Shown here one piece after another: positions 15,700 to 64,000 of a stretch of DNA of 64,000 nt; position 1 is the first letter of the stretch, and each line of letters starts with the position of its first letter. The notes beneath the pieces are model-generated. The model saw nothing but the letters and a program-made list of their open reading frames with translations, searched no databases and was not told the DNA's origin. Origin of the DNA: Macrolepiota albuminosa (Eukaryota; Basidiomycota; Agaricomycetes; Agaricales; Agaricaceae); NCBI GenBank assembly GCA_027475525.1, contig JAMWFC010000105.1:62001-126000 (forward strand), given 5' to 3'. The position numbers and the translations under genes are program-made.

Positions 15700-17518
15700 T
15701 CATGTGACGTCCTTGCACGTGAGCCAGTTGAGAAGTTTTGTGATATTGGAGTAGTTGTCTATAAACCTCTGGTAGAAGTTAGCAAAACCCAAGAAAGATT
15801 GTACTTCCTTGATGTTCTGGAGTAATGGCCAGTTGACAATGGCTTTGACCTTGTGGGAGTTCATATGAACACCTTTTGGGAATACTATGATGCCAAGATA
15901 CTCAATCTCTTCCATGTGGAACAAGCACTTCTTGGGCTTGGCATAGAGGTTGTGTTCTTAGAGGCGTTCAAGGACTTGCCAGACATGCTTCTGGTGGTCC
16001 TCCTTTGAGTCAGAGTAGATGAGAATGTCATCCAGGTAAATGATGACAAAGATATTGCTTCATATCATAGAAGATGTCATTCATGAAGTATTGGAATGTG
16101 GCAGAGGAGTTGGTCATTCTGAAAAGCATTACGAGGTACTCAAACAGACCATACCGTGTGCAAAACGCTAATGACGCCAACTGTAGTTGGGTGCACTGGA
16201 CGTATACGCAGTACAACGCTGTCTCTAGCGCCTGGCATACGGGTTTGTGAGGAGTCCTGGCAGGGTCCCGGTGTGCTCAAGCAGAGGTGATAGGGCGATG
16301 CGCTAGATGATAGCGCCTCGGGTGCTACCTAGCAAGTGGTAAGCGTCGTAGTTTAGGAGAAGTTATAGAGAATAAAACGAATAGCGCAGCGTAGCGTGCC
16401 CGTAGGTGGCACCGTAAACGACGAAGACGAGATAGACAAAGCTAGCGCCGAACTTGGTGGCAAAGTCAGGCAACGCTAGCGCGATTTGAACGCTAAGTGT
16501 AACTGGGTGCTCAAGAGGTTACGATTCGTTTTTATATACATGGCAAGTAGCTAGTTTTTATACTATGCGCTACGGTATTTCCAAAATAAGTCCATTGACG
16601 GCGCTACCAATTAGCACTTCTCTTCGTGGCTGTAGCTAACGGCCACCTGTCAACAGCAACCTGCAGCACATGGGTGACGGCGACCAACGGCGACTCTAAA
16701 ACTACTTAGAAATGGTACGAGTTTGCTCACTTTTTGATGTAATTTAATTGGCCATGCCATCCTGGGGTATAGTCGGGAAATCCTCGACAGACGCCGTGAG
16801 CGCTAATTTTGGCGCTAAACATTGTACCATCTTTTGATAGATTTAAATGTTGGGTCTGCGTGTATCCTGTCTTGTCGTCATTGATTCCTTTAGACTTCTG
16901 ATTGAAGTGCCTCAGTGATTGACAGCGCCAATTGCTAACTTCTTTCAGTATTGATCGGGGTTTGGTCAGAGTCACCTCCCGCCATTGTGCTAGCGCTATG
17001 AGTTCTGAGCCTCCTTCATCCTTGGGATAGGTGAATGGAGTGTGCTGAAAGCTTGGTAGCTAGTGGTTAGGATAAATGTCTAAATCCTGTAGTCGGTTGC
17101 CAGAGCTAGAGCTGCTCTATATTCCCAACTGGTCGCTAGAGTCCTCAGTACGTCAAGTGTTGGTTGGCCTATAATGTCCCTTAATGCGCTTAGTCTGAGT
17201 AGAAGCCTATCAACACAGTTTTTCACTCATGTCCTGGGGCGATGTGGACATTATTGTAGCCAGAGCAGAGGTCAATTTTTGTATAAACCTTGGCACTGCA
17301 GAGTCAATCAACCAGATTGCCAATGAGTGGGAGTGGGTAGCAGTTCTTTTTGGTGATCTTATTGAGTCTCCAGTAGTTGACACAAAGTCAGAGCAAGCCA
17401 TTCTTCTTCTTGGTGAATAGACTGGAGCTTCAGCAGCAGAGGCCAAGAGGCAGATGAATCTCTTCCTGAGCATTTTGTTGAGGTAGTCCTGGAGGGCACA
17501 TAGTTTGGTTTCTGACAT
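15700..17518 (-). pseudogene. pol: Reverse transcriptase of element E, split by LTR A1
   Basis: Right part (17518-17217): MSETKLCALQDYLNKMLRK and, in a second frame, IDLCSGYNNVHIAPGHE. Left part (16164-15700): CTRYGLFEYLVM, FQYFMNDIFYDM, the YLDDILIY region near 16,030, then EEIEYLGIIVFPKGV and EVQSFLGFANFYQRFIDNY. The two parts join exactly across the solo LTR at 16169-17212, in the residues between HEWKTAF and CTRYG. Confidence 0.85.
16169..17212. repeat. Solo LTR of family A, copy 1
   Basis: Begins TAATGACGCC (expected TGATGACGCC) and ends GCCTATCA. Target duplication ACGC (16165-16168) / ACAC (17213-17216), differing by one CpG decay. Sits inside E reverse transcriptase. A TATATAAAAA element reads on the minus strand near 16,530-16,540. 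Confidence 0.9.
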
Positions 17519-17624
17519 GTTGTATATCTAGCATTTTGTTGAGATAGTTCTTGAGGGCACGTAGTTTGGTTTCCGACATGTTGTATACCTTGCCAAAGGG
17601 TGGCTTTGGGACTGGTTTCAGGGC

Positions 17625-18014
17625 TCAGAGTTTGGGTGTTGGGTCGCTTTCGAGGGCCCAGAGGTGTATGGTGGTCGTCAAGTGGTCCTTGAGTCCTGAA
17701 AACATCATGGTGAGTGTTCTCCAGTCAATGTCAGAGTTCACATCCTGCAGCCAGGGGAGCCCTAGTATGAGTGGGGTTGAATTGTGAAGCTGTGTAACCA
17801 GGAAGTCTGACGTGAATTTGAAACTGTTGTCCAGGGTCATGTGCCCTGGGTAGGACCTCCTGATGGGGCTGGAGGAGGAGGGGGTGCCATTGAGCCATTG
17901 TAGATTGAGGGGTTGCTCAAGAGGGTCATGGAGGAGATCAAAGGTGTCACTGACAAAGACCCTAGTGGCTCTGCTGTTGATGAGGGCCGATAACGGTCCT
18001 GGGGTGCCATCCAA
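17625..18014 (-). pseudogene. pol: Retropepsin of element E, active site lost
   Basis: Minus-strand frame of 129 residues with ALINSRATRVFVSDTF near its start and PLILGLPWLQDVNSDIDW later. In retropepsins the first motif is D-S/T-G-A; here Asp has become Asn and Gly has become Arg, both G-to-A type changes on this strand, so the enzyme is inactive. The hydrophobic-ILG motif typical of the family is kept. Confidence 0.8.
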
Positions 18015-19339: not shown

Positions 19340-20400
19340 TGATGATGCCAACTGTAGTTGGATGCGCTGGACGTATACACAGTACAATGCTGTCTCCAGC
19401 GCTTGGCATGTGTAGTTATGAGGAGTCTCAATAGAGTCCTAGTGTGCTTGAGCAAAGGTGATAAAACAACGTGCTAGATGATAGCGCCTCACGTGCTACC
19501 TGGCAAATGGTAAGCGTTATAGTTTATACAAAGATATAGAAGAAAAGATGAATAGCACGGCATAGTATGCCCATAGGTGGCACCGTAAATGACGAAGATG
19601 AGATAAACAAGGCTAGCACCTGACTTAGTGACAAAGTTCGAGCAAGCTAGCGCAATTTGAACACTAAGTGTAACTTGGATGCTTAAGAGGTTACGATTCG
19701 TTGTTATGTACATCCAGAGTAGCTATCTTTTATACTATGTGCTACTATATTTTTAAAATGAGTCCATTTATGGTGCTACCAATTAGCACCTCTCCTTATG
19801 GTTGTAAGTAACAGCGACCTGTCAATAGTAACTGGTATCCATAGGGCAACGGCGACCAACGGAATTATAGCCCACTGGCCACGGCAACTCTAAATTGACT
19901 TAAACTTTGTAGGAGTCTGCTCACTTTTTAGTGTAATTCCAATTGGCCAGGCCTTGGCAGGGTATGGTCAGAAATCCTTGACAGACACCATGAGTTCTGC
20001 TGCCAGCGCTAGTATCAATTCTTGGTGAATAAAATGTTGGGCTAGAGTATATCTTGTTCCGTCGCTGCTGATTCTTTAGACTTCTGATTAAAGTGCCTCG
20101 TCCAATGGCAGCACCTAATGCTAACTCCTTTATGGAACTGATCAGGGTTTGGTCAAAGTTGTGTCTCCGCTGTCATGCTAGCACCCTGAGTCTTTGGTCT
20201 TCTAATCCTCCAAGGTCAATAAATGGTATATGCTGAAGGCTTAGTAGTGGTGGTTTAGACTGATAACCAGCGCCTATAATTGAGCGCTAAGGTCTGTGGT
20301 TTCCTGTGTCCAAGAAGATCGCTAGGGTCTCGAGTATGGCCTGTGTTCGTAGGCCTGTAGTGTGCCCCTTGATGCGCTCAGTCTGAGTATAAGCCTATCA
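19340..20400. repeat. Solo LTR of family A, copy 2
   Basis: Begins TGATGATGCCAACTG and ends AGCCTATCA with perfect 4-bp duplication CCAG (19336-19339, 20401-20404). Inserted in E gag between NNLFNL and WMHSEERF. Collinear with copies at 16169 and 25673. Confidence 0.92.
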
Positions 20401-24845: not shown

Positions 24846-26888
24846 TGATGATGCCTAAAAGTAGATTAGTAGCAGATGCAGTTTACAGCTACTAACCTGT
24901 ATAAAATATGTTTGAGCATGCTAAAGGTTGAGGGAATCCTGGGCAGTTCTCAGAAAACAAGTCAGAAACTGAGTTGAACAGCAATATTTAGTTAAAGTCG
25001 ATAATGATAGTCAGTAAGGATGGGCAGTAAGGAAGATGCACTAATGACAAAGTGCATCTAAAGAATAAGAAGAAGTAGATAGGAGTAAGTGCGGCAAAGG
25101 ATGCGGCAAGAAAACTAGAGGCTTAGCAATGACTAAGCTGCATGATGCCTGCCATAGGTGCAAGGCACATAGATTTCATAAGCGTAACTGCAACAAGCAG
25201 GCTAAGAGTGTTTACACAGTTGGTAACTATAAACTTAGTCAGCTCAAAAGAAATCTGAACCTTGAGGTGAACTGAGAGGTGTAAACTGGGGTACTCTGTT
25301 TTTTCTTTAACTAGTGACAACAATAAATATTTATAGTAAAATGAGTTCACCATTGCTAAGTGGCTAAGCATTGCCAAGGAGCAGTGAACTGAAAAAAATG
25401 TAAGCAGTTGCCATGCATTAAATTAAATATTGAGAAGTTAATGAGAATACTGTTTGTCTAAGTAAAGAAAAAGCACTAAGCAGTGCCAGGCACCAAAGTG
25501 AAATACCAGGCTGTCAGTCACAAAGAAATACTATCATTCCTACTCATATGTACTGCCACCAGCTAATAATACCATATGCTGCCTGAGTGATGCCATCTGT
25601 CAATGCTTGCCAACAGCATAATGCCTGCTATTACTTGTTATTCCAGCTGCTGTCAGCACTATTACTAATCGGTGATAGGCTTCTCCTCTGAATGAGTGCA
25701 TTAAGGGGCACACTACAGGCCTATGGACACTGGCCATACTGGAGACCCTAGCGATCCTCTCGGACACAAGATACCATGGGCCTTAGCACTCAGTTATAGG
25801 TGTTGTTTATCAGTCCAAACCACTATTATTAAGCCTTCAGCATACACCACTCATTGACTTTAAAGAATTAAGAGATCCAGGACTTATGGCACTAGCATGA
25901 TGGCAGAGAAGTGACTTTGATCAAACCCCAATCAGTTCTATAAAGGAGTTAGCATTAGGCACTGCCATTTGACAAGGCACTTCAATCAGAAGTCTAAAGA
26001 ACCAGCAATGACAGAACAGGATATATTCTAACCCAACATCTTATTCATCAAGAATTGATACAAGGTTTAGCGCTAATATTAGAACTCATGGCATCTGTCA
26101 AGGATTTTCTGACCATATCCTGTAAAGGCCTGGCCAATCGGAATGACACCAAAAAGTGAGCAGACTCATACAAGTTAAAGTCAGTTTAGAGTCGCTGTGG
26201 CTAATGGGCTATAACACCGTTGATCACCATTCCTCTATGTGTGCTGGTCACCGTTGACAGATTGCCGTTAATTGTAACCATAAGGAGAGGTGCTAATTGG
26301 TAGTGCCATATATGGACTTATTTCAGAAATATAGTAGCAAATTGTATAAAAAATAGCTACTCTGCATGTATATAGCAACGAATCGTGACCCTTAAGTATC
26401 CAAGTTACACTTAGCATTCAAATCGCACCAGCTTAGCCCAACATTGTCACCAAGTTGGGTGCTAACTTTGTTTATCTCATCTTCATTGTTTGTGGTGCCA
26501 CCTATAGGCATGTTACATTGCGCTATTCATCTTTATCTCTCTATATCTTTGCTTAGGCTGTGGCACTTACAGTTTGTCAGGTAGCATCCAAGGCACTATT
26601 TTCTAGCACGTTGCCCTATCATATTTGCTCAAGCATACCAGGACTCTGTCAGAACTCCTCCCAACTATACATGCCAGGTGCTGGAGACAGTGTTGTACTG
26701 AGTATATGTCCAGTGCATCCAACTATAGTTGGCATCATTATTGGGTACATTGCTTGCCATACATGGCCATTGGAAATGGCTTAAAATGGATAAATTGCAT
26801 GTGCCAAGTTCAGAATGAGTGTGGCAAGATGTCCAGAGCTGATGCTGAGCCTGCTGTTGATGCACCTAGCCTGTGTGGAGTTCTATCA
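24846..26888 (-). repeat. 5' LTR of the decayed B element, interrupted by LTR A3
   Basis: Begins TGATGATGCCTAAAAG and ends GTTCTATCA; collinear with the intact B LTR at 54633-55585 at several anchors (GCCTGCCATAGGTGCAAGG; TGATGCCATCTGTCA; CTGCTGTTGATGC). LTR A3 occupies 25673-26740. It adjoins B gag on the left, so it is the 5' LTR of the minus-strand copy. Right flank is E2 gag. Confidence 0.8.
25673..26740. repeat. Solo LTR of family A, copy 3 (opposite orientation)
   Basis: Begins TGATAGGC and ends GGCATCATTA, the reverse complement of copies 1 and 2. Target duplication TCGG (25669-25672) / TTGG (26741-26744), one CpG decay apart. Inserted in the B LTR at the site that reads GATCGG near 55,420 in the intact LTR. 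Confidence 0.9.
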
Positions 26889-48406: not shown

Positions 48407-49421
48407 TGATAGGACCCCATACAGGATCAGCACATCAACGGCAGGCTACGGCAACACGGCACAGGCCCGGGATACCTTAGCGCACGCTAACTAACCAATT
48501 TTGGCAATATTTGATGGCTGCGCACGGCAAGAAGCAGATCCAATCAGTGATAGCACCGACGGCAGACAGAATGACAACTGACAGATGGCATCAGTCACTG
48601 ATGACAGCGCTTAGCAAGAAGCCTGATGATCTATTAAAAACTGACAGACAGCTTGGCGTTTGACCTTGGCGTCTGACACCGCTTAGCGCCTCGATCTGGC
48701 ACCTGACATCGCTAAGCATTTTGGACAGACAGAAGGGTGATGAATTGATGGTTTAGCTTCGTGATCTGTCGCCTGGCGTCGCTAAGGTCCTTGAATGGAC
48801 GGTAGGGATCTGAAACCGTTGGAGCTACCCCTATAAATTTTCTAGTTTACTGCACTTTGACAATAGTTGGTCACTGGCGACGGTGAACTCCTTGTAGTAT
48901 ATAAAGTACTTACCGACTTGTACATAAAAAAAAAAAACAATAGACCAGAGTTTCCTGCTCCCCTTACTTCAGTCTCCCTTACGCTTGAGATTTCATTTAC
49001 GGTCGGCAACATCGAACTCGTCGGCAGTTGCAGACTTCATCACTAGCCTTCGACCTATTCGCGCCTTGCAGCTACGGCAGGCATTTACGACGCTTAGACT
49101 TCGCTAAGCTTACCATACTCTTGCCACTCACGTTGCCATGTTCACTTACCGCTCCCTTCATAGGCGCTTTACTTTAGCGCGTTACGCTTGCTGACCCCCT
49201 TATCGACTCTTCCCCATTTTCATAGGCGTGTTCTCTGGGACCTGCCCGGGACTCCTCACATCACTTATAGCGCGCCCAACGCAAGCAATTGGTACGGTAA
49301 CACTATAACTATATTTGTTACTGACCAAACTTTGGGCGTCATCATAGCGCGCCCAACGCAAGCAATTGGTACGGTAACACTATAACTATATTTGTTACTG
49401 ACCAAACTTTGGGCGTCATCA
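48407..49421 (+). repeat. Solo LTR of family B
   Basis: Starts TGATAGGACCCC and ends GGCGTCATCA, the reverse complement layout of 54633-55585. Possible 4-bp duplication ATGT (48403-48406) / ATAT (49422-49425) with one mismatch. TATA box (GTATATAAAG) at about 48897. Keeps many CpGs, so it is a young insertion. Its last 77 bp are duplicated in tandem (49267-49343 and 49344-49420). Confidence 0.88.
49267..49420. repeat. 77-bp tandem duplication at the LTR end
   Basis: ATAGCGCGCCCAACGC... repeats with offset 77 and no difference seen. Both copies end GGCGTCATCA, so the LTR has two possible 3' ends. Confidence 0.9.
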
Positions 49422-53099: not shown

Positions 53100-53560
53100 T
53101 AGATATCAAATATTAACATAGTAATGCTAAAGAACACATGACGTTAAAAAGGGAAGATATTATTCATATATCTGTAACTATACAGATGAATGGTAGTATC
53201 ACATGACGTTAAAAATTGAAGACATTATTCCCATGCATCTCTGTAACCATACAGATGAACAGTAATATCACATGACAGTAAAAAGCAAAGACATTATTTC
53301 CACACATACCTAGTCTACTGCTGACTAAGTAACTGTACAGACAAATGGTATATCACATGTGTTAAAAATTGAAGATATTATTATACCTAGTCTACTGCTG
53401 ACTAAGTAACTGTACAGACAAATGGTATATCACATGTGTTAAAAATTGAAGATATTATTCCCATGCATATCTGTAACCATACAGATGAACAGTAGTATCA
53501 CATGATGTTAAAAAGTGAAGACATTATTCCCATGCTTATCTGAAGAAAATAATGGCAATG
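53100..53560. repeat. Minisatellite of about 60-85 bp units
   Basis: Six to seven units share ATCACATGACGTTAAAAA, GAAGAYATTATT and TAACCATACAGATGAAYAGT. Two adjacent units that include TACCTAGTCTACTGCTGAC (about 53305-53455) are almost identical, so the array has expanded recently. Confidence 0.8.
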
Positions 53561-54632: not shown

Positions 54633-55585
54633 TGATGACGCCCAAAGTTTGGTCAGTAACAAATGTAACGATTGTGTTACCGTACCAAGAGTGTGCGTTG
54701 GGCGCGCTAAAAGTAATTTGAGGAGTCCCGGGCAGGTCCCAGAGAACGCGTCTGTGAAAAAGGTGAAAAGTCGGTAACGGGTGCCGGCAAGTGTAAGCGC
54801 TAAGGTAAAGCGCCTAGGAAGAAGCGGTAAGTGAAGACGGCAAGGGTGAGCGGCAAGAGCACGATAAGCTTAGCGAAGTTCTAAGCGTCGATAATGCCTG
54901 CCGTAGTTGCAAGGCGCGAGTATGTCGAGTGTTGGCGAACGTCTGCAACTGCCGATGAGTTTTGACGTTGCCGACCGTAGCGTAAATGAGCTCTTGAGCG
55001 TAAGGGAGAGACTGAAGTAAGGGGAGTAAACTGTGGTCTATTCGTCTGCTCTCCAATGTACAAGTCGGTAAGTACTTTTATACTACAATAAGTTCGCCGT
55101 CGCCAGTGGCTAATGACGCCAGAGTGCGGTAAACTGGAAAATTTCAAAGGGGTAGCTCCAACGGTTTCAGATCCCTACCGTCCATTCAAGAGCCTTAGCG
55201 ACGCCAGGCGACAGATCGCGAAGCTAAACCATCACTCCATCACCCTTCTGTCCGTCAGAGTACCTAAGCGATGTCAGGCGCCAAATCGAGACGCTAAGCG
55301 GTGTCAGACGCCAAGGTCAAACACCAAGCTGTCCATCAGTTTTTGATAGATCATCAGGCTTCTCGCTAAGCGCTGTCGTCAGTGACTGATGCCATCTGTC
55401 AGTTGTCATTCTGTCTGCCGATCGGCGCTATCATTGATTGGATCTGCTTCTTGCCGTGCGCGGCCGTCAGAAGTGGCTTAAAATAGGTAAAACGCGTGCG
55501 CTAAGTTCGGAACGAGTGCGGCAAGGTTTCCGGAGCCGGTGCCGAGCCTGCCGTTGATGCGCCTAATCTGTATAGGGTCCTATCA
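54633..55585 (-). repeat. 3' LTR of element B (953 bp)
   Basis: Plus strand begins TGATGACGCCCAAAG and ends GGGTCCTATCA. Collinear with the solo LTR at 48407-49421 (inverted) and the decayed one at 24846-26888. A TATA-like TATAAAAGTAC reads on the minus strand at about 55,073-55,083. Confidence 0.92.
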
Positions 55586-55597
55586 TCTCCCCCCAAC
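55586..55597 (-). promoter_or_regulatory. Polypurine tract of element B
   Basis: TCTCCCCCCAAC on the plus strand (GTTGGGGGGAGA on the minus) directly abuts the LTR start TGATAGGACC, fixing the minus orientation. Confidence 0.88.
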
Positions 55598-55754
55598 TGA
55601 AAAATTGACTGTCCTCAGTCACCAAATAAGGCTACTGTTACCGCTTTTGTGACAGGTGGTCCGTGCGTTCTTGAGATTTTGTTTATAGTCCTGGCGCGTG
55701 AGTTTGGACTTCGTTTCTTCTCCCATCTTTTTCCTGGCGCTCAAATAAAAAAAT

Positions 55755-57603
55755 ATGTCTTTCCGTATTCCAACTCCGCCTCCAGTCCCGTCTCAGGCTG
55801 CTCAAGAAGCCGCCTACGCATACATCGCTAAGGCCAACCGGTTTATTCGGCACATCGAGGGCGTTGGCGCCGAGGCGTCTCAAAATTTGGTGGTTGGCGT
55901 CATGAAGCTGCTGGAGAAGTGGTATGAGGTAAGGGTCCTTGGCGTTGGCTGGGATCGAGAGATCGAGGTGCGGGAGTGGTGCCGGGCCCGCTATGTGGAT
56001 AATCGTGGCGCGGAGTGGTTAGCGCCGTTTTCTCGTTTTGTAAGTGCTTTTAGCCCTTGCCGTGTCGCTTAGCTAATTCCTCCCTAGGCGCCTCCCCCCG
56101 TCCTTACTATCGAAGATGAACTTGAGGACATCCTTTCTGGCGCGTTGCCGATGACCGTAAGCGCATCGGCAACAGAGTAAGTAGCTTCTGACCTTCCCTT
56201 CTCTAGCTATGGACTGAACTGTCTCCTCGTAGTAAGCAAGAGGTACTGGAGCCTCTTGCTCGATTGCAGATCGAGCAAGAGCAGGAGGAGGCTGCCGCTG
56301 CCGCTGCCGCGCACTCCTTGGCGGTGGCAAGGGCAGAGCTCGCCAAGGAGCAGAAGAAGGAGTCCGTTGCCGAGGGTTCCAGCAAGGGGTCTCGCGCCGG
56401 CAGTGTTCAGAGCCCCACACTGCCGGCAGGCACACAGGGTTCGCCTTCAAAGCCTGGAAAGGCTTTGAAGAAAAAGGTAAGTCTGCTGTCGTTGGCGCTT
56501 CTTCTTACCGGTGGTAACTGTCGCTAGTCTCGCAAGGGGAAGGGTCCTCAATACGAGGTACGCCGTCGTGACACTTTGCCGACCTTTTACTGACTCTCTC
56601 TCAGCTCCCTAGTCAGACCACTTTCGACGACAAGGAGTTGAAGGGTCTGCTCTTGCCGCGCCGGGAAGATGTCGTGATGGATGAGGGCATTGAGGGAGGA
56701 GTGGAAATCCCCGAGATGAAGAACAAGCGTACAGTTTCCTTGGCGACGCGCCAAGAGTTCAAAGATTCGCGGGGAGCGGTAAGCAACTTGTCTTTTATAA
56801 CTTTTCTTCCACTAGACTGGTCTTAGTGCGACAAATGTTGGGCTGACAACGACCCCGAAAGTTGTTGGTTTCCCACTGGCGCTCAACCGTGCTACCGATG
56901 CGGCACTCTCAAGCGTGCCTGTACCATTGATGGCGCCAAGAGTCGCGAGCGGGGCGGAGCGCCTGATGCCTTTGTCGAGAGGACCTTCTCTCGGGCGGTT
57001 TTGGTCAAGCGGGCGAGGGAGTTTGTTGAGGGGGAACGTAGGGAGGTTGCCGCTGGGAGGGCGGCGAAGATTAGCAAGTCCTCCTTGGCGCTGCCGACGC
57101 GCCAAGGAGATGAATCGGAATCGGTCGGCAAGCGCGGCGCTGGCGAGCGCCAGGAAAAACGCAAGGCCCCCTCCCCAAGCAAGGGCAAGGGTAAGGCCAA
57201 ACGTGTACGCATCGAGTCGCCCCCCTCCTCTCCAACTGCTGAGGACACGGAGATGAGGGAACTTGGAGAGGCCCTTGCCGCCAGTCGCCTCCCTGCCGTT
57301 AGCGGTGAGGCTGGCCCTAGCCGCCTATTGTCCCCTCTCTCCTTGCCTGAAAACGCGCCTGCCGACGTGTCAACAGCTGGCGCCGCAGGAGATGAGGGTG
57401 ACGTTGTAATGGGAGAGCCCGCTGGCGCGCAAGAGGTAGCTGGGGAGGAGGAGAAACGGGAAGGATCGCCGAGTCGCGAGGAGGTCGGGGGCGGCAGTGA
57501 AGATGCTGAGGGAGAGGCAGAGGAAACTTTGCGGGAGGTTCCTGGCGAGTCCTCGGAATTGCCGGCGGTGGAGCCTACCGCCCCCTGGCTAAGCGGCGAC
57601 TAG
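55755..57603 (+). CDS. Antisense accessory gene of element B, spliced, with Zn2Cys6-like cluster
   Basis: ATG 55755 (MSFRIPTPPPVPSQ) with five GT-AG introns: 56040-56087, 56157-56206, 56477-56527, 56558-56604, 56779-56826. All are 47-51 nt and phase 0. The spliced product is 534 residues ending TAG at 57601-57603. It has a helical N-terminus (1-95), an Ala/Glu/Lys-rich middle (to about 218), and then, opening exon 6, Cys277-x2-Cys-x8-Cys-x8-Cys-x2-Cys-x6-Cys308 (CDKCWADNDPESC, CYRCGTLKRAC), close to the fungal binuclear zinc-cluster pattern. Basic stretches (KRKAPSPSKGKGKAKR) could be nuclear signals; an acidic tail follows. Convergent with pol. DNA binding is inferred only. Confidence 0.72.
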
Positions 57604-57990
57604 TTAGCGACACAGCACTGGTTGAGCTCCAGTGGGCCTTCGTCTTGGACCCCCCAGCCTCAGCCAAGAGTTGCTGGCGACTCATACGAGTGGCTGGGGG
57701 AAGACTTGGTCTACCCGGTGGTCGCCTTGTACCCGCCACAAGTCATAGAGCGGATGGCGGTACGTGCGGCAAGCATGCGTGCAGTATTGGGTCGCGAACG
57801 CGAGCGAGTCCGGCAGCAAATTATGGCGTCGCGACTTCGATATGCCAATTTGACCCGTAGTATGGATGCGCTGCAAGAGTACCAAGCCGACTGTAATGAG
57901 GCGCTAGAGTGGCAAGCCCTCAACCACGTTCAAGTTGGCGATCTCCTACCCTTCGACGACTCCCTGCCTCTCACCGATAGCGAAAATTGA
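57604..57990 (+). CDS. In-frame continuation after the TAG of the accessory gene
   Basis: Same frame as exon 6, open for 128 codons after the TAG to TGA 57988-57990. Reads SYEWLGEDLVYPVVALYPPQ, an Arg-rich helix (GRERERVRQQIMASRLRY) and ends LLPFDDSLPLTDSEN. Either the TAG is a recent nonsense change in a 663-codon gene, or it is skipped by an unrecognised intron, or a separate protein starts at 57622. The coiled, charged composition suits a C-terminal dimerisation region. Confidence 0.5.
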   Translation, partial: LATQHWLSSSGPSSWTPQPQPRVAGDSYEWLGEDLVYPVVALYPPQVIERMAVRAASMRAVLGRERERVRQQIMASRLRYANLTRSMDALQEYQADCNEALEWQALNHVQVGDLLPFDDSLPLTDSEN

Positions 57991-58419
57991 CGGACCTTAG
58001 AGTAGATAGGCCGTCGTGTATATATTTTGTTTGTTACCGACTCGATTTATATAAATTGCCTGTTTCTTTGCCGAGTGGAAGAATTGAGTCCCGTAATCTG
58101 AGTTAGCGCAACAGCATGGAGCCAAGAAAGTAAAGTAAAGAGAAAGCAAGCGGCAAGCATTCTAAGATAGGGTTTTTAGCGATAGGAGTAGTATGAGAGG
58201 GACTTAGACAAATTTTTGAAGAAAAGGGAAACGCTCAGTAGATCATCATAGCGAAAAACCCTTGGCGAGAGTTGCGCAGGGCGCTAAGCGTTGGCGACAC
58301 GCTAGCGCTGCGGCTTAACTACGTAAGGAATGTCTGTTGAATATAGTATAATAAGTAGCGGCAAGAAAGATAAGTAAAGTAAGTAATAGAAAAATGAGAG
58401 CTTATCAATATAGTCTTTT
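57991..58419. other. Convergent intergenic region in element B
   Basis: Lies between the 3' ends of the accessory gene (plus) and pol (minus). No frame. Rich in GCGCTAAGCG-type words. Both transcripts should end here; no terminator motif is decisive. Confidence 0.5.
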
Positions 58420-61400
58420 CTAGTCAATTTCTTCTTCTTCAACTAAAGTCGGCAAGTCATCATCGTCCAATAGTTCGGTTTCTTCAAGTTCTCTCAGCTT
58501 GGCGGTGTCGATATCTAGCGCTTCAAGCGGCAAGTCAATTTGTTCCCTGGCGAGATACGGTAATAGGCGAAAGGCGGCAACAGGTCGATGTAGCACTGAA
58601 CCATCTAATTCACAGAGCACGTAAGCGCCTCCACGATTACGAGAGATAACTACCAAAGGTCCTAGATAGCGAGGGCGCATTTTCTTGTTGTATGAAGTTT
58701 CGATTTTGGAGTTGCGCATGAGCACTAGCGCCCCTCTCGGGAAGTTGTAATCTTTGATGGTAGCGCTATGCTCAGTTTCGAATCGTAGGGCTGCTTGGCG
58801 ACGGGCGCTAAAGACTACCTCGTGGAGTCGCTCTAAATCTTCTCTCCTTCGCTGGAGATCAATAGCTCGTCTGGCGATAAGATCGGTAGTCGCTAAGATG
58901 CTGTTGGGAGCTGGCTGAAGGTAGGTTGCTTCTATGATGTCGGCAGGGAGTAAAGGATGGGTGCCAGTAGCCGCGTAATAGGGAGAGCAACCCATGCGCT
59001 TACGAATAGTAACTCTTTCCGACCAGAATACTGAATACGTCGCCTCACTCCAACGAGACTCGTCGCCATCAACCGCCTTGAAGAGCGCTTGCCGGACGTC
59101 AAAGTGTGGTCTCTCTACCAGGCCATTGGCGCGCTTGTTGTAGCCAGATACTCGAATGTGGTGAATATTGTATTTCTTGGCGAGGTAAGTTAGCGCTTTG
59201 ATGATGGGCGCACCGTTATCCGTGACGATTTCTCTTAGCGCTCCCCATCGGCAGATGACGTCTTCAAATAGCCACTTAGCGACCGCCTCGGTATTTTCTC
59301 TTTGAAGCATGCGAAACTCAGGCCAGTGGATTAGCGAACAACGACCTTGAATGATGTACTTGTAGCGACCAGATTTAGGCATATGCATGGTGTCGACGTA
59401 GATTTTGCTGAAGAGGGGAGCTGGCGTTGCAACGGTTGGCGGTATGAGCACTTGGCGTGTCTGTTGAATTTGGCAGAGGTGGCAAGTCCTAATGTACCAG
59501 GCGATGTCGGCACTAGCGTGTGGCCACCAGAAGCGTTCTAACAGAGAAGCTCGGGTAGCGTACAGACCTCTATGTCCTAGCTCGTCATGCATAGCGCGCA
59601 AGACTCGTAAGCGACTTTCTGGTTTGATGATCAGCTTGTGAGCGCCGTCTCGATTTCGTCGCCAAAGTCGGTTGTCGGTAAAGAAGAAGTGGGTAGCATA
59701 GCGGATAAAGGTAGCGTATTGTTCGTCGGTAAGGTCTGGGGGTCGCTTAAGGTCTTGTATCCATTGCTCGACTACCAATAGGCGACTATCTTCCGCCTTT
59801 GCCTTGGCGGATCGGGGAACGGCATCGTAGGTCAGGTTTTTGCTGTCTTCTCTTAGCGACTGAGGTTCCTGTACGACTTTTACTGGAGGCAAGTTTTGAC
59901 TGTGGATGCTTGCCGTGTAGAACGTGAGGGGTGCGCTAAAGGTCTCGGGGCGGTAAGGGACTATGGGATGTAACAGGATGCTGGTAGGCTGTTGCCGTCG
60001 TAGTAAGGGAATTGGCTGTTGAATGAGGTGCACGAAACCATGTAGTCGGTCGATCCAGTCCTCGAAATCGCTATCAGCCTGTGGGTCCACTGCCGGGTCG
60101 CCAGGCTGCCGTGGTCGCCTAGAGAGTCCATCTGGGCCGTGGAAAGAGCTCTTGACGTGTACCAGCTCAAAGTGAAACATGAGGATAGCGACTACCCACC
60201 GATTCATGCTAGCGGATGGCTGGATATCGGGATTCTGCAGCATGCCTTTGATGTACCTAGCGTCGACCTCAACGATAAGGTTGCGCACGCCAATCAAATA
60301 CATCTTTAGCGACCGGAAGGCTTTGAAGAGCCCATAGAGTTCTAGCTTAGGCTGGCTGTAGCGAGACTCTCTGTCGTTTAGCGTGATAGACCCAAAGCGG
60401 TTGTAGCGTCGCTGTTTCCGATTGTCGCTAAGGCACTGGCACAGGAAGTAGCCAACAGCAATGTACGAGGTATCCACCGCCAAGATAACAGGGTCGGCAG
60501 AGGTATAATCGATGGGGACTAGGGGCTTGGCGTCCTGCAGAGCTTTTACTAAGTCGCGTTGTGCGGTAACCTGGTCTGGCCCAAATTCGAAGGGCTCGTT
60601 GGCGCGGGTGAGTCGGTTAAGAGCATGTGCGCGATGGGCAAAGTTTTTGACGAATATCCTGAGAACGCCAACGGTGCCAAGAAAGGCGCGAACTTCAGAT
60701 AAGTCGCGGCAAGGGCCCCATCGCTCCAGGAGTGCTAAGCGAGACTCGTCGGGAACGCGACCGTCGGGAGTGCAGATGTGACCAAGGATTTTGAACCTTG
60801 GCGCGCAAAGGAGAAGTTTGTGACCGCTAAAAGTCCCACCGCTATACTTCATACGCTGGAGGACTCGATTGAGCAGCTGGAAGAAGTCCCATAGCGCTAA
60901 GCGAATATTGGGGTTCTCGGGATGGGTCGCCGGTAAGCCGTTCATGAGTCGCCAGTCTTTGGGGCCTTTGACGCCAACGTCATCGATGAAGCTAAGGACT
61001 TTATGCGGTATCTCGGGTTGGAGGATGAAAGTGATGTCGTCATGGAATATGGGGACTGAGTTTGTCCAGCCCATCGGCAAGGTAACTAGGCGCAAGGCGC
61101 CAAACGGAGTTTGAAAGGTAGTGAGATCCCGGGAAGAGGGGTGTATCAGGCGTTCGTCGTAGCCAACGTAGAGATCAAGGGTGGCGCCACAGATACGCCC
61201 GGCAAAGGACTCGGCAAAGTGGTCAGGGAAAGGCGGTACGCCAGAGTGTCGTATGGTTACTCTATTCAGCGGCTCAAGACTGTGAACTATGCGTAGATTG
61301 CCGTTCTTTTTGAGGACACAGAACCAACGGGAGCGGTAAGAACTGTTTGAGGGCTCGTAGACGCCAGCCTGTATCTTAGTCCTAATAATCTGACAGACCT

Positions 61401-62169
61401 CGGCTTCGATCCCAGGCGGTAACGGTCGGTTGTGCTCAGTCCACGGCACGTGAGGAATAGTCGGGATTACAACAGGCGGGAAGAAATCTGTACGTAGGCT
61501 GCCGCGTTCGGAGTCCTCCCAAGCGAAGGCTTTGTCTTGCTTAGCGACAAGATCGGTAAGGACGTTTAACTCATCTTTGGTCAAAAATCCTGTGTCGTGC
61601 TCCTTGGCGAACTGCTGTTGGCGTTCCTCGGTAAAACGTCCTGTGGGCTGAAAGGGTGGCGGATTCGGTGATAAGGCCGGCATGTCGGCAAGAGGGTCGC
61701 CAATGATCTGGCGCTCGATTCTGAAAGTCTCGGGAGAGTGCGTAGCGATGGGTTTTGTTTTAAGCGCAACTGGCTTATATTTCTTTTTAACTTGAACCCC
61801 TTTCCTTTTGGGAGCGTTAGCTTGGTTATACACAGATGTGGAAAGGGGAACTGTAGCCTGAGGGGCGGCAAGTCCAAGAACGGCAGGAGACGAGGCTCCG
61901 GGAAGAGTGGTGAGATAAGTATCGGTAGACGCAATATTTTGAAATGACTCGGAAGCGGTAAGGTACAAGTAGGCAAGAGAGGAGTCGGTAATATTTTGGT
62001 TTTTCTGGGAAGGTTCTGCGTCGGTAGCGGGTAAAGTAGTTAAAACGTCTTGGTCAAGAAAAGCAGTAGACAAAACAGTTACAAGACCAGTTGAATGGTC
62101 AAATTCCAGCGTTAGCGCTACATCTCCGTGATCGTCGCCAATCACCTCCTTGATGGTCTGTGAAAACAC
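58420..62169 (-). CDS. pol: Pol of element B: reverse transcriptase, RNase H, integrase
   Basis: 1,249 codons without interruption. RT at about 250-430: NLRIVHSLEPLNRV, GATLDLYVGYDER, FQTPFGALRLVTLPMGW and the catalytic FIDD at 394-397 in place of the usual YxDD. RNase H at about 560-680 with AVDTSY, ELYG and VEVDAR acids. Integrase: His861, His866, Cys896, Cys899 zinc site; catalytic D926 (YVDTMHM), D984 (TDNGAP) and E1019 (LVERPH). No chromodomain is evident at the C-terminus. Belongs to a divergent Agaricomycete gypsy lineage. The frame starts at GTG 62169 only formally; it overlaps gag-protease in the -1 frame, so it is likely made by frameshifting. Confidence 0.92.
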   Translation of the reverse strand: MFSQTIKEVIGDDHGDVALTLEFDHSTGLVTVLSTAFLDQDVLTTLPATDAEPSQKNQNITDSSLAYLYLTASESFQNIASTDTYLTTLPGASSPAVLGLAAPQATVPLSTSVYNQANAPKRKGVQVKKKYKPVALKTKPIATHSPETFRIERQIIGDPLADMPALSPNPPPFQPTGRFTEERQQQFAKEHDTGFLTKDELNVLTDLVAKQDKAFAWEDSERGSLRTDFFPPVVIPTIPHVPWTEHNRPLPPGIEAEVCQIIRTKIQAGVYEPSNSSYRSRWFCVLKKNGNLRIVHSLEPLNRVTIRHSGVPPFPDHFAESFAGRICGATLDLYVGYDERLIHPSSRDLTTFQTPFGALRLVTLPMGWTNSVPIFHDDITFILQPEIPHKVLSFIDDVGVKGPKDWRLMNGLPATHPENPNIRLALWDFFQLLNRVLQRMKYSGGTFSGHKLLLCAPRFKILGHICTPDGRVPDESRLALLERWGPCRDLSEVRAFLGTVGVLRIFVKNFAHRAHALNRLTRANEPFEFGPDQVTAQRDLVKALQDAKPLVPIDYTSADPVILAVDTSYIAVGYFLCQCLSDNRKQRRYNRFGSITLNDRESRYSQPKLELYGLFKAFRSLKMYLIGVRNLIVEVDARYIKGMLQNPDIQPSASMNRWVVAILMFHFELVHVKSSFHGPDGLSRRPRQPGDPAVDPQADSDFEDWIDRLHGFVHLIQQPIPLLRRQQPTSILLHPIVPYRPETFSAPLTFYTASIHSQNLPPVKVVQEPQSLREDSKNLTYDAVPRSAKAKAEDSRLLVVEQWIQDLKRPPDLTDEQYATFIRYATHFFFTDNRLWRRNRDGAHKLIIKPESRLRVLRAMHDELGHRGLYATRASLLERFWWPHASADIAWYIRTCHLCQIQQTRQVLIPPTVATPAPLFSKIYVDTMHMPKSGRYKYIIQGRCSLIHWPEFRMLQRENTEAVAKWLFEDVICRWGALREIVTDNGAPIIKALTYLAKKYNIHHIRVSGYNKRANGLVERPHFDVRQALFKAVDGDESRWSEATYSVFWSERVTIRKRMGCSPYYAATGTHPLLPADIIEATYLQPAPNSILATTDLIARRAIDLQRRREDLERLHEVVFSARRQAALRFETEHSATIKDYNFPRGALVLMRNSKIETSYNKKMRPRYLGPLVVISRNRGGAYVLCELDGSVLHRPVAAFRLLPYLAREQIDLPLEALDIDTAKLRELEETELLDDDDLPTLVEEEEID

Positions 62170-64000
62170 CGGTGGGGAGGCTCGTTGGCGTGCTGGTCGG
62201 TAAACTCCGGGGGCTTAGCGCGGGCGCCTTTTCGTTGTCCCCTAGGGAACGTTGGCACCGTTCGTCGGATTCCGGAATTTGGGTCGCTAATTGTGAGGGT
62301 CGTTTCCTCGTCGGTAACCGTCTTGACGACTGATCGCGCCAAGACGTCGAAGGGTCTGCCGAGTAGTAAGTCGTAAGCCGGGGAGCGTAAAATGTGGATC
62401 TGAAGATAAAACGTAATGTCGCCAAGGGTGCACGGCACATTCTTGGCGAGGCCTAGGGATCTGTCTACCGTACCGTTAGCGCTCTGCATGTTTAGTATAA
62501 CGGTAGGGTCGTAAATAAGGCCTAGATCGTTAGCGACTTCTGCTGCCATAGAAATAATCTGAGACCCGCTATCCACGATTGCCTCTACTTCGTGCTTGTT
62601 GTCTACTGTTAGCGCTACCGAGCGGATAGCGTGCGATTCTTGAGCGACGGTAAGGATTGCGGGGTCCTCTCCATGGTCCACAGACCTAAGGTAGGTCTCC
62701 ACTGGGTCCACCGAGGTGGCGTTAGCGATGGAGTCGGCAGGAGAATCTTCAGCGTCGGGAGAGTCGATGGTAACAGAGAAACCAGGAAGCGCGTCGTCGA
62801 GTTCATCAACCTCGGCAACGGCTGTCGCCAAGGGTCGTCGAGGAGTGACTGCCGTCTTGACTTGGTTGCGGACGTCGGGAGCAATACTACAAAGCTCTTC
62901 TACTGATAAGGTAACATTGGTTTTCATGATGCGGTTAAAGACGTGGTTGGATTTCTCGATATCGAATATTGGCGCAGTAGGTCGGTAGCCACCCTCAGGA
63001 CGTTTCTCGGGAGCGGCAAAGTTTCGTTGTGCTGGTGCGTGATAACGGTCGGGAATCCCTGAGTAGGGATGGAGAGGCGGCAAAGGCGGTTCGGGAGCGG
63101 TAGCGGTCGATGATGGTTCTGGAGCGGTAGCAGGGGCAGCGGCAGGCGGTGCGGTAGGAGCAGGTGTCGGTAACTTGCTAGCGGGAGGCATCGGCTTGTA
63201 TCCTTTAAGAGGTTGTTTAGGCTGCTTAACTTCAACCCCATCAAAAACCTGATTCTTAAGCGAATCCAACTCCTGTTGGAGCTTGGCGATACGCTCTTCC
63301 CGCGAAAAAGTAGGGTGGTCGCCAACGCTGTCGAAATGTAGGACCTCGTGAATCATCTGCTGTTGGGTCGCCTGTTCGGGGTCGGGGTTGGCGTTGCCAG
63401 ATAGCGTGCCGGTAACGATTTGTCCTGGGTTGCGCCTATGCCATTCATCTACCCGCTCCTGGAAGGACTTCTTGTCTGGGTAGTTGGGGATGGTGGCGCC
63501 AGTGGTGAGGACTATCTTGCCGTCGATAGCCCTTCGAATTCTACCTTGGCGAACGTAATTCTCGAGGGTAGCGCAGCGTCCTCTAGTCATGGTATGGCCA
63601 ATTTCCCCACAGAAGTGGCAAGGGCCAGGCGCGGGTACGTTAGCGGGTCGGTTAGCCGTGAGGTTGGTGGTGATCATGGTTTCAATACGCGTCATAGCGG
63701 AAGCGACAGCGGCGGTAATCGCAGCATTGAGCTCCTCCTTCTTAACGAAGTCGGCAGCGGGAGGCGGGATGGGAATGATACCGTTAGTTCGCTCAGGTGG
63801 TGGGCTCGTCCTAGCGCGCTGCAGTCCAACGCCAGTGTCCGTTCCCTTGAGAACCCATTTACCGGCTTCAAAGACGTCGGCAACGTTATAGGGCTCGTCT
63901 GGGTGATGAGCCTGATGAACTATCTCTAGGCGACGAGCAATACGAGTCCAAAGCGAAGTCGGGATGCCTTGCTGGAACAGGCGACGCTCCTCGTTAATAT
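62142..64000 (-). CDS. gag: Gag-protease of element B, 5' end outside window
   Basis: Open from the right edge to TGA at 62142. Numbering from Met 63695: a zinc-knuckle-like CHFCGEIGHTMTRGRC (26-41; spacing C-x2-C-x4-H-x6-C, slightly unusual), KIVLTTGATIPNYPDKKSF, a Pro/Ala-rich linker (170-215), and a retropepsin with IVDSGSQII (Asp375) and YDLLLGRPFD (441-450). The frame continues upstream of that Met (DFVKKEELNAAITAAVA, RRLFQQGIPTSLWTRIA) to the edge, so capsid lies partly outside. Protease is in the gag frame and RT in the -1 frame; the overlap is at least 28 nt. Confidence 0.9.
   Translation of the reverse strand, partial: INEERRLFQQGIPTSLWTRIARRLEIVHQAHHPDEPYNVADVFEAGKWVLKGTDTGVGLQRARTSPPPERTNGIIPIPPPAADFVKKEELNAAITAAVASAMTRIETMITTNLTANRPANVPAPGPCHFCGEIGHTMTRGRCATLENYVRQGRIRRAIDGKIVLTTGATIPNYPDKKSFQERVDEWHRRNPGQIVTGTLSGNANPDPEQATQQQMIHEVLHFDSVGDHPTFSREERIAKLQQELDSLKNQVFDGVEVKQPKQPLKGYKPMPPASKLPTPAPTAPPAAAPATAPEPSSTATAPEPPLPPLHPYSGIPDRYHAPAQRNFAAPEKRPEGGYRPTAPIFDIEKSNHVFNRIMKTNVTLSVEELCSIAPDVRNQVKTAVTPRRPLATAVAEVDELDDALPGFSVTIDSPDAEDSPADSIANATSVDPVETYLRSVDHGEDPAILTVAQESHAIRSVALTVDNKHEVEAIVDSGSQIISMAAEVANDLGLIYDPTVILNMQSANGTVDRSLGLAKNVPCTLGDITFYLQIHILRSPAYDLLLGRPFDVLARSVVKTVTDEETTLTISDPNSGIRRTVPTFPRGQRKGARAKPPEFTDQHANEPPHRCFHRPSRR

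What the first reader, a model, noticed from the sequence alone, without database searches (positions are those of the whole stretch)
55755..57990. Spliced antisense gene with a Zn2Cys6-like cluster inside a young gypsy element
Between pol and the 3' LTR of element B, on the opposite strand, a gene with five introns reads as a 534-residue protein (663 if a TAG is read through). All introns are phase 0 and 47-51 nt with proper GT-AG ends, hard to get by chance. The cluster C-x2-C-x8-C-x8-C-x2-C-x6-C begins exactly at an exon start. A retroelement carrying an antisense, intron-bearing, putative DNA-binding gene suggests a captured host regulator, perhaps controlling the LTR or host silencing. 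Introns in an antisense gene survive retrotransposition, because the genomic RNA is the other strand and its splice sites are not recognised.
Basis: partly seen in the sequence, partly recalled or inferred. Interest (0 to 1): 0.88.

Follow-up and report, generated by a model that had tools for sequence, protein, structure and literature searches.

The report
Retrotransposon's spliced antisense gene plus motif
A jumping element in a mushroom-like fungal genome carries, on its opposite strand, a real intron-bearing gene kept by natural selection, and its DNA is peppered with one short word that this gene's protein may recognise, which would be a way for a genomic parasite to mark and manage its own copies.

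Summary
Between pol and the 3' LTR of a young Ty3/gypsy element (LTRs 952/953 identical), on the opposite strand, lies a six-exon gene. Over 39 distinct copies codon position 3 varies far more than positions 1 and 2 in every exon, introns drift, and median dN/dS is 0.10. The TAG is seen in 1 of 40 copies. All 40 keep the gene antisense to pol. Named relatives outside this genome are all Termitomyces proteins.

'Captured host Zn2Cys6 regulator' is not supported: the cysteines are conserved, but the spacing differs, PF00172 does not match, and no host source was found. Antisense genes in this place are known (plants; Boty brtn).

New: the element's four most over-represented hexamers are exactly CG[G/C][T/C]AA, 15.9 per kb against about 1 in the rest of the window, on both strands, in LTR, gag, pol and the gene, far beyond codon-preserving shuffles. 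A diverged sister lineage (protein 41-45% identical) shows the shifted motif CGSTA. Best reading: the gene encodes a DNA-binding protein acting on its own family's motifs, like plant VANC anti-silencing proteins. Binding and anti-silencing are inferred, not shown.

The parts
54633..55585 (-). 3' LTR of the element (gag-pol is read on the minus strand), TGAT...ATCA, 953 nt; its U3 end lies next to the antisense gene
   Evidence: 952/953 identical to the 5' LTR at G000:C51:126835-127787, outside the window; flanks share GCGC as possible 4-nt target duplication
55586..55594 (-). polypurine tract next to the 3' LTR (GGGGGGAGA on the minus strand)
   Evidence: read from sequence
55755..56039 (+). 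exon 1 of the antisense gene: conserved N-terminal part (95 aa), helical in the model of a relative
   Evidence: median dN/dS 0.039; helices at pLDDT about 75-87 in the model of Termitomyces relative P0020
56040..56087 (+). intron 1, 48 nt, phase 0
56088..56156 (+). exon 2
   Evidence: median dN/dS 0.056
56157..56206 (+). intron 2, 50 nt, phase 0 (alternative in-frame pair: donor 56177, acceptor 56232)
   Evidence: LWTELSP after it recurs in Termitomyces proteins P0003, P0007, P0010, P0018, P0020
56207..56476 (+). exon 3 (long helix predicted in the relative)
   Evidence: median dN/dS 0.082
56477..56527 (+). intron 3, 51 nt, phase 0
56528..56557 (+). exon 4
   Evidence: median dN/dS 0.037
56558..56604 (+). 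intron 4, 47 nt, phase 0
56605..56778 (+). exon 5
   Evidence: median dN/dS 0.073
56779..56826 (+). intron 5, 48 nt, phase 0; drifts most (0.44 differences per site between copies) while GT-AG is kept
56827..57990 (+). exon 6: six-cysteine cluster at 56827-56922, basic and acidic linkers, C-terminal long helix; copy-specific TAG at 57601-57603
   Evidence: median dN/dS 0.128, after the TAG 0.089; C-terminal helix with pLDDT mostly above 90 in the model of another copy's exon 6
58420..62214 (-). pol frame, 1264 codons (RNase H, integrase H2C2; SH3-like tail only a weak match) in sense with the element
   Evidence: Pfam; C-terminal 250 codons dN/dS 0.056
62215..64000 (-). gag side with zinc knuckle CHFCGEIGHTMTRGRC; the element continues past the window end to the 5' LTR
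54633..64000 (.). 149 copies of CG[GC][CT]AA (77 on +, 72 on -), spread over LTR, antisense gene, spacer, pol and gag

Best explanation
This is a long-standing accessory gene of a Ty3/gypsy lineage. It is transcribed against gag-pol, starting near the 3' LTR (the ATG lies 169 nt inside the LTR's U3 end), spliced at five small introns, and translated into a protein of about 660 residues with an N-terminal helical part, a six-cysteine (putative zinc) cluster, basic and acidic linkers and a long C-terminal helix. The protein most likely enters the nucleus and binds the short DNA word CGSYAR (best CGSYAA) that is written through the whole element, LTR and coding regions alike, so that it acts on its own family. 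The likeliest effect is to keep or make these copies transcribable (anti-silencing, as VANC does for VANDAL transposons). A sister lineage with a diverged protein carries a shifted word, CGSTA. Shown: gene structure, selection, antisense placement, motif enrichment at DNA level, motif shift between two lineages. Inferred: transcription, zinc binding, nuclear entry, motif binding by this protein, and the direction of the effect.
For: Selection on every exon in the spliced frame; 40 of 40 fetched copies (the window's own included) have pol antisense just downstream; the same layout in a lineage whose gene is 41-45% and pol 73-86% identical in protein; related gene models in Termitomyces (their DNA not seen). 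Motif: the four variants are the top four hexamers by z (11-13), together 149 in 9,368 nt against 58 in the other 54,632 nt; strands 77/72; pol 62 against 11.1 +/- 2.9 in codon-preserving shuffles, maximum 21 of 1000; gag 29 against 7.2 +/- 2.3, antisense CDS 20 against 5.5 +/- 2.1 (400 shuffles each); order-3 Markov 53.3 +/- 6.6; words with one of the first five bases changed occur at 0.5-1.6 of expectation while the motif is at 5.7. Shift: in the same 1,338 nt of pol, lineage 1 is enriched for CGSTA (23 vs 6.8) and CGSCA (19 vs 7.0), lineage 2 only for CGSTA (20 vs 6.1; CGSCA 7 vs 6.1).
Against: No transcript, binding or methylation data. The link between protein and motif rests on their joint presence and on a single contrast of two lineages. 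Lineage 2 still has somewhat more CGSYAA than its shuffles (8 against 3.4 +/- 1.7, equal to the maximum of 400). Within copies the motif is kept better than permuted CpG words overall (0.83 vs 0.625; 1 of 51 controls as high) and than all permuted words (mean 0.663; 13 of 308 as high), but in the LTR alone it is not distinguishable from controls (0.879 vs 0.842; 15 of 38 as high). The cluster is not a Pfam Zn_clus match. Fold searches gave nothing significant, and both models are of low overall confidence. Gypsy elements without the gene were not sampled as motif controls.
Confidence: 0.5

Rival explanations
1. The gene is an HBZ- or gene23-like regulator of the element's own expression or copy number (for example a brake on the LTR), and the element-wide word is bound by it for that purpose or is not its target at all.
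For: Placement next to U3 of the 3' LTR, antisense direction and conservation; the review of plant antisense ORFs proposes regulatory roles and cites nuclear localisation of the Grande protein.
Against: A brake on the LTR needs sites in the LTR, not 16 per kb through pol and gag; an element-borne repressor is harder to keep under dN/dS 0.10 unless it helps the element (inference).
Confidence: 0.2
2. The motif is unrelated to the gene: it is bound by a host protein, or by gag or integrase, or is selected for chromatin, packaging or recombination reasons; the gene does something else (for instance import or protection of the cDNA).
For: Motif spread through coding sequence is unlike VANC sites, which lie in non-coding tandem repeats; binding was not tested; only two lineages were compared; elements without the gene were not examined.
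Against: Symmetry between strands (77/72) speaks for double-stranded DNA, not for packaged RNA; the preferred word changes with the lineage while the host is the same.
Confidence: 0.25
3. A recently captured host Zn2Cys6 transcription factor.
For: Six conserved cysteines with a second half C-x2-C-x6-C like that family (family pattern recalled).
Against: No Pfam Zn_clus match; none of the 62 PF00172 sites found in the genome coincides with listed gene places (by eye); named relatives found are Termitomyces hypothetical proteins only; present in two diverged element lineages, so not recent.
Confidence: 0.04
4. Chance open frames or a splice pattern read into noise.
For: None found.
Against: Codon-position pattern in six exons, drift in introns, dN/dS 0.10 against 1.6-1.7 in shifted frames.
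Confidence: 0.01

Closest known systems
Antisense additional ORFs (aORF-3R) of plant Ty3/gypsy elements: Grande gene23, RIRE2, Retand (TRP28), PvRetro13
   Same: Between pol and 3' LTR, opposite to gag-pol, kept in most copies; a nuclear or DNA-binding role suggested (PMC7264820 parts 1-2 of 3 read; PMC11963269 passages).
   Different: No Pfam domain was found here; this one has five introns and a six-cysteine cluster and lies in a fungal element. The word 'intron' does not occur in the text of either paper as held.
brtn of Boty-like elements in Botrytis cinerea
   Same: Fungal gypsy element with an extra antisense gene (named in PMC7264820, PMC8365987 and PMC4227169; text or passages seen; the original Virology 2011 paper was not found in the library).
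   Different: The BRTN sequence is not at hand, so homology and splicing were not tested.
VANC anti-silencing proteins of Arabidopsis VANDAL transposons
   Same: An element-encoded protein plus short words accumulated in the same element family, with words that differ between VANC21 and VANC6 targets (PMC5735166, passages seen).
   Different: There a DNA transposon, words in non-coding tandem repeats, binding and demethylation shown; here an LTR element, words in coding and non-coding parts at dispersed spacing, binding not shown, no homology known.
HBZ of HTLV-1
   Same: Antisense gene with a nuclear product, antisense promoter in the 3' LTR (passages of PMC11963269 and PMC7264820).
   Different: bZIP protein of a retrovirus (recalled); no relation shown or tested.
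Fungal Zn2Cys6 (Gal4-type) proteins
   Same: Six cysteines in two C-x2-C groups.
   Different: Spacing 8 between C2 and C3, acidic stretch there, no PF00172 match.

Membership tests
Ty3/gypsy LTR retrotransposon | Two LTRs with target duplication | tested here: met
   952/953 identical LTRs; GCGC on both sides, only 4 nt
Ty3/gypsy LTR retrotransposon | gag zinc knuckle; RNase H before integrase in pol | tested here: met
[quoted passage not shown]
   40 of 40 fetched copies, chosen as best DNA matches; also L054 and C101
Antisense aORF between pol and 3' LTR | Coding sequence conserved like other element proteins | tested here: met
   median dN/dS 0.104 against 0.056 for the pol C-terminus
Antisense aORF between pol and 3' LTR | Transcribed from its own promoter | not testable with these tools
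   no RNA data
Fungal Zn2Cys6 (PF00172) | Match to the Pfam profile | tested here: not met
   E <= 1; 0 of 20 members at E <= 10, with HMMER's filters on
Fungal Zn2Cys6 (PF00172) | C-x2-C-x6-C spacing with basic residues (pattern recalled) | tested here: not met
   x8 with WADNDPES (sequence)
Fungal Zn2Cys6 (PF00172) | Binuclear zinc, DNA binding | not testable with these tools
   cluster has low confidence in both models
VANC-like sequence-specific system (works like, not member of) | Short word over-represented in the element that encodes the protein | tested here: met
VANC-like sequence-specific system (works like, not member of) | Word differs between sister families with diverged proteins | tested here: met
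   one contrast of two lineages only
VANC-like sequence-specific system (works like, not member of) | Protein binds the word and lifts silencing | not testable with these tools
   needs experiment
VANC proteins (homology) | Sequence similarity to VANC | not tested
   VANC sequences were not compared; Pfam found no family in the cluster exon
Boty brtn | Sequence similarity to BRTN | not tested
   sequence not at hand

The most novel reading that the evidence does not exclude
A sequence-specific self-recognition (probably anti-silencing) system in a fungal LTR retrotransposon: a spliced antisense gene makes a cysteine-cluster DNA-binding protein, and the element has rewritten its LTRs and even its gag, pol and accessory coding sequence with the protein's short target word, which drifts together with the protein between lineages (CGSYAR in one, CGSTA in the other).
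Probability: 0.42. Interest if true: 0.93.

Novelty: new variant of a known kind. Interest (0 to 1): 0.8.

Why it matters
What antisense accessory genes of LTR retrotransposons do is open (the review read here says their function is not known). A candidate target word, at 16 sites per kb and shifted in a sister lineage, turns that into a direct binding test. If true, it would be a VANC-type marking system outside plants and in a retroelement, with target sites selected inside coding sequence.

Tried and rejected
Captured host transcription factor: rejected for lack of any host relative found, no PF00172 match and presence in two diverged lineages. TAG as normal end: rejected, 39 of 40 copies lack it and the part after it is under constraint. 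Intron 2 at 56177-56232: first taken, then dropped because LWTELSP recurs in Termitomyces gene models and, among the copies, changes only silently apart from one following codon; as an alternative isoform it is not excluded. Codon usage as cause of the motif: rejected by codon-preserving shuffles. A distinct GCGCTA motif in lineage 2, my first reading, was replaced by CGSTA after the position-by-position test. IMG/VR scan: no relative. PDB sequence search: nothing. Foldseek in PDB and BFVD: nothing at E <= 0.001. Of the 105 profile hits many lack the cysteine pattern (28 of the 106 proteins P0001-P0106 carry it) and one (P0097) has no named source, so they were not counted as relatives. Searches scored only the 7,989 and 7,993 candidates sharing most words. 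No paper describing this gene, or a motif of this kind in an LTR element, was seen in the listings of the ten searches made; the library misses most subscription papers.

Full report
What is there. The window holds the 3' end (low coordinates) of an element whose gag and pol run on the minus strand. Its 3' LTR is 54633-55585; the 5' LTR lies past the window end at C51:126835-127787, and the two agree at 952 of 953 positions. Outside both LTRs stands GCGC, a possible 4-nt target duplication. Pfam finds RNase H and the integrase H2C2 domain in the 1264-codon pol frame, and the gag side has a CCHC knuckle. The ATG of the antisense gene lies 169 nt from the inner end of the LTR, and the gene ends 429 nt before the end of pol.

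The gene. The gene region matches 51 pieces in the genome, but only 40 of 523 candidates were scored; exon 6 as protein gives 161 matches, with 147 of 858 candidates scored, so copy numbers are lower bounds. Among the close copies in that list the exon-6 frame is mostly 387 codons long, against 258 for the window's own. I fetched 40 places, the best DNA matches including the window's own, so these are close relatives by choice. In all 40, pol lies antisense just downstream.

Selection. Over 39 distinct rows the differences per codon position show third-position excess in all six exons, while introns drift. Median dN/dS over all exons is 0.104, by exon 0.037 to 0.128, and all 715 pairs used are below 1; 26 of 741 pairs were dropped for dS <= 0.05 or saturation. 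Reading exon 6 one or two bases off gives 1.58 and 1.73. The C-terminal 250 codons of pol give 0.056 (732 of 741 pairs). Counted in the window's columns, 8 of 40 copies carry an in-frame stop (the window's own among them), 4 an exon-length change that breaks the frame other than by 77 nt, 7 a 77-nt exon duplication that looks like an assembly fault; by my reading of that table 20 of 40 are open throughout with usable splice ends. Six copies appear there with AG at the intron-3 start; in the three of them shown the intron begins one codon earlier, with GT.

Lineages. L049, L050, L051, L054, L056 and L057 are 57-77% identical to the window in the exon-6 protein over the matched parts. A second lineage at C101 (L053, L055) is 41-45% identical in the gene, and 73% and 85-86% in two stretches of pol, with the gene again antisense, between pol and an LTR whose end matches the window's. 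The accessory protein thus changes much faster than pol between lineages, though it is constrained within one. Named relatives in the protein database are all Termitomyces proteins: 19 of 19 hits and 29 of 29.

The protein. In the alignment of L010 exon 6 with 19 relatives C1, C4 and C13 of the cluster are invariant and C22, C25 and C32 nearly so. PF00172 is not listed for any of the 20 at E <= 10, though HMMER's filters drop most matches above 0.1, and the 62 PF00172 sites of the genome do not coincide with the gene places listed (compared by eye). AlphaFold2 gave an N-terminal helical part (pLDDT about 75-87, in P0020) and a long C-terminal helix (mostly above 90), the cluster itself being of low confidence; pTM is 0.29 and 0.25. 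No structural match was significant.

The motif. Ranking all hexamers of the element against a trinucleotide model put CGGCAA, CGCTAA, CGGTAA and CGCCAA first to fourth, z 11 to 13 (I had noticed the word by eye just before). Together CG[GC][CT]AA occurs 149 times in 9,368 nt (15.9 per kb): LTR 22.0, antisense gene 13.0, spacer 21.0, pol 16.3, gag side 15.1 per kb, against 1.06 in the other 54,632 nt, or 0.76 without the 2-kb bin that holds a solo LTR of the family. Strands are equal, 77 and 72. Shuffling synonymous codons leaves 11.1 +/- 2.9 in pol where 62 are seen (1000 shuffles, maximum 21), 7.2 +/- 2.3 in gag where 29 are seen, and 5.5 +/- 2.1 in the antisense CDS up to the TAG where 20 are seen (400 shuffles each). 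An order-3 Markov model gives 53.3 +/- 6.6, maximum 68 of 200. The word is sharp: changing any of its first five positions drops observed/expected from 5.7 to 0.5-1.6; the sixth allows G (3.0). In the 40 copies the fetched element part has a median of 15.2 per kb (10.0-16.8), 39 outer flanks 1.8, with 11 of the 39 at 7.3 or more, probably because copies sit in other copies (the reason is inference).

Is the motif kept? Among 22 comparison copies (14 of 40 left out for 77-nt duplications or other breaks; the reference, its near-identical L010 and L011, and one duplicate row not counted) 68 sites are retained at 0.832, against a mean of 0.663 for 308 permuted words (13 as high) and 0.625 for 51 CpG-bearing ones (1 as high). 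In the LTR alone the difference is not clear: 0.879 against 0.842, 15 of 38 as high. Support is moderate.

Does it change with the protein? Six further lineage-1 loci have 11.5 to 15.9 per kb, lineage 2 has 4.8. In the same aligned 1,338 nt of pol, lineage 1 shows CGSTA 23 and CGSCA 19 against 6.8 and 7.0 in shuffles; lineage 2 shows CGSTA 20 against 6.1 +/- 2.3 but CGSCA 7 against 6.1 +/- 2.1, and CGSYAA 8 against 3.4 +/- 1.7. LTR pieces of lineage 2 in the window agree: 16,001-18,000 has 19 CGSTA and 4 CGSCA. So the preferred word differs in its fourth base and in its last. This is one contrast only.

Interpretation. A dense, strand-symmetric, sharp word written through coding and non-coding DNA, changing between lineages in one host, is best explained as the target of a double-stranded DNA-binding protein that travels with the element. 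The antisense gene is the obvious candidate. Among known systems VANC of VANDAL transposons works this way: short words, element-encoded protein, other words for a related protein, loss of silencing (passages of PMC5735166). Its words sit in non-coding tandem repeats; here they are dispersed and inside genes. Antisense genes in this position are known in plants and in Boty, so the position is not new. What looks new is the five-intron structure, the cysteine cluster and, above all, the word. Binding, expression and effect remain to be shown.

Noticed in passing
window 49267-49420 and 53306-53459; L010, L012, L016, L017, L019, L020, L025 and other loci: Exact or near-exact 77-nt tandem duplications at unrelated places, always the same length, inside and outside the elements: most likely unmerged contig overlaps (k = 77) in the assembly; they break some copies' frames artificially.
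   Followed up: partly
window 56157-56232: Intron 2 has two donors and two acceptors, both pairings in frame (MTLWTELSPRSKQ or MTVSASATDKQ); donor 2 and acceptor 2 are intact in 39 of 39 rows, donor 1 in 37. Termitomyces gene models show both kinds (P0014 against P0019). Possible conserved alternative splicing.
   Followed up: partly
L035, L043, L047: Mosaic copies: the first 490-1,500 nt of the gene about 98% or more identical to the window's copy, the rest 85-88%: recombination or gene conversion between subfamilies, or assembly chimaeras.
   Followed up: no
window 48407-49421, 26773-26888, 16221-17212, 19392-20400, 25892-26667: A solo LTR and LTR pieces of the window's lineage (first two) and of the second lineage (last three) elsewhere in the window.
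   Followed up: partly
P0025 (Termitomyces sp. J132, 909 aa): A public gene model joins a stretch with PF14223 (copia-type gag, name recalled) to a relative of the antisense protein: a fused annotation or a nested insertion.
   Followed up: no
window 54772-54851 and 55279-55298: Within the LTR several motif copies are spaced exactly 13 nt apart in the same orientation (5 of the 10 such neighbouring pairs in the element lie in the LTR).
   Followed up: no
window 53139-53541: A short array of 104-nt imperfect repeats just outside the element.
   Followed up: no
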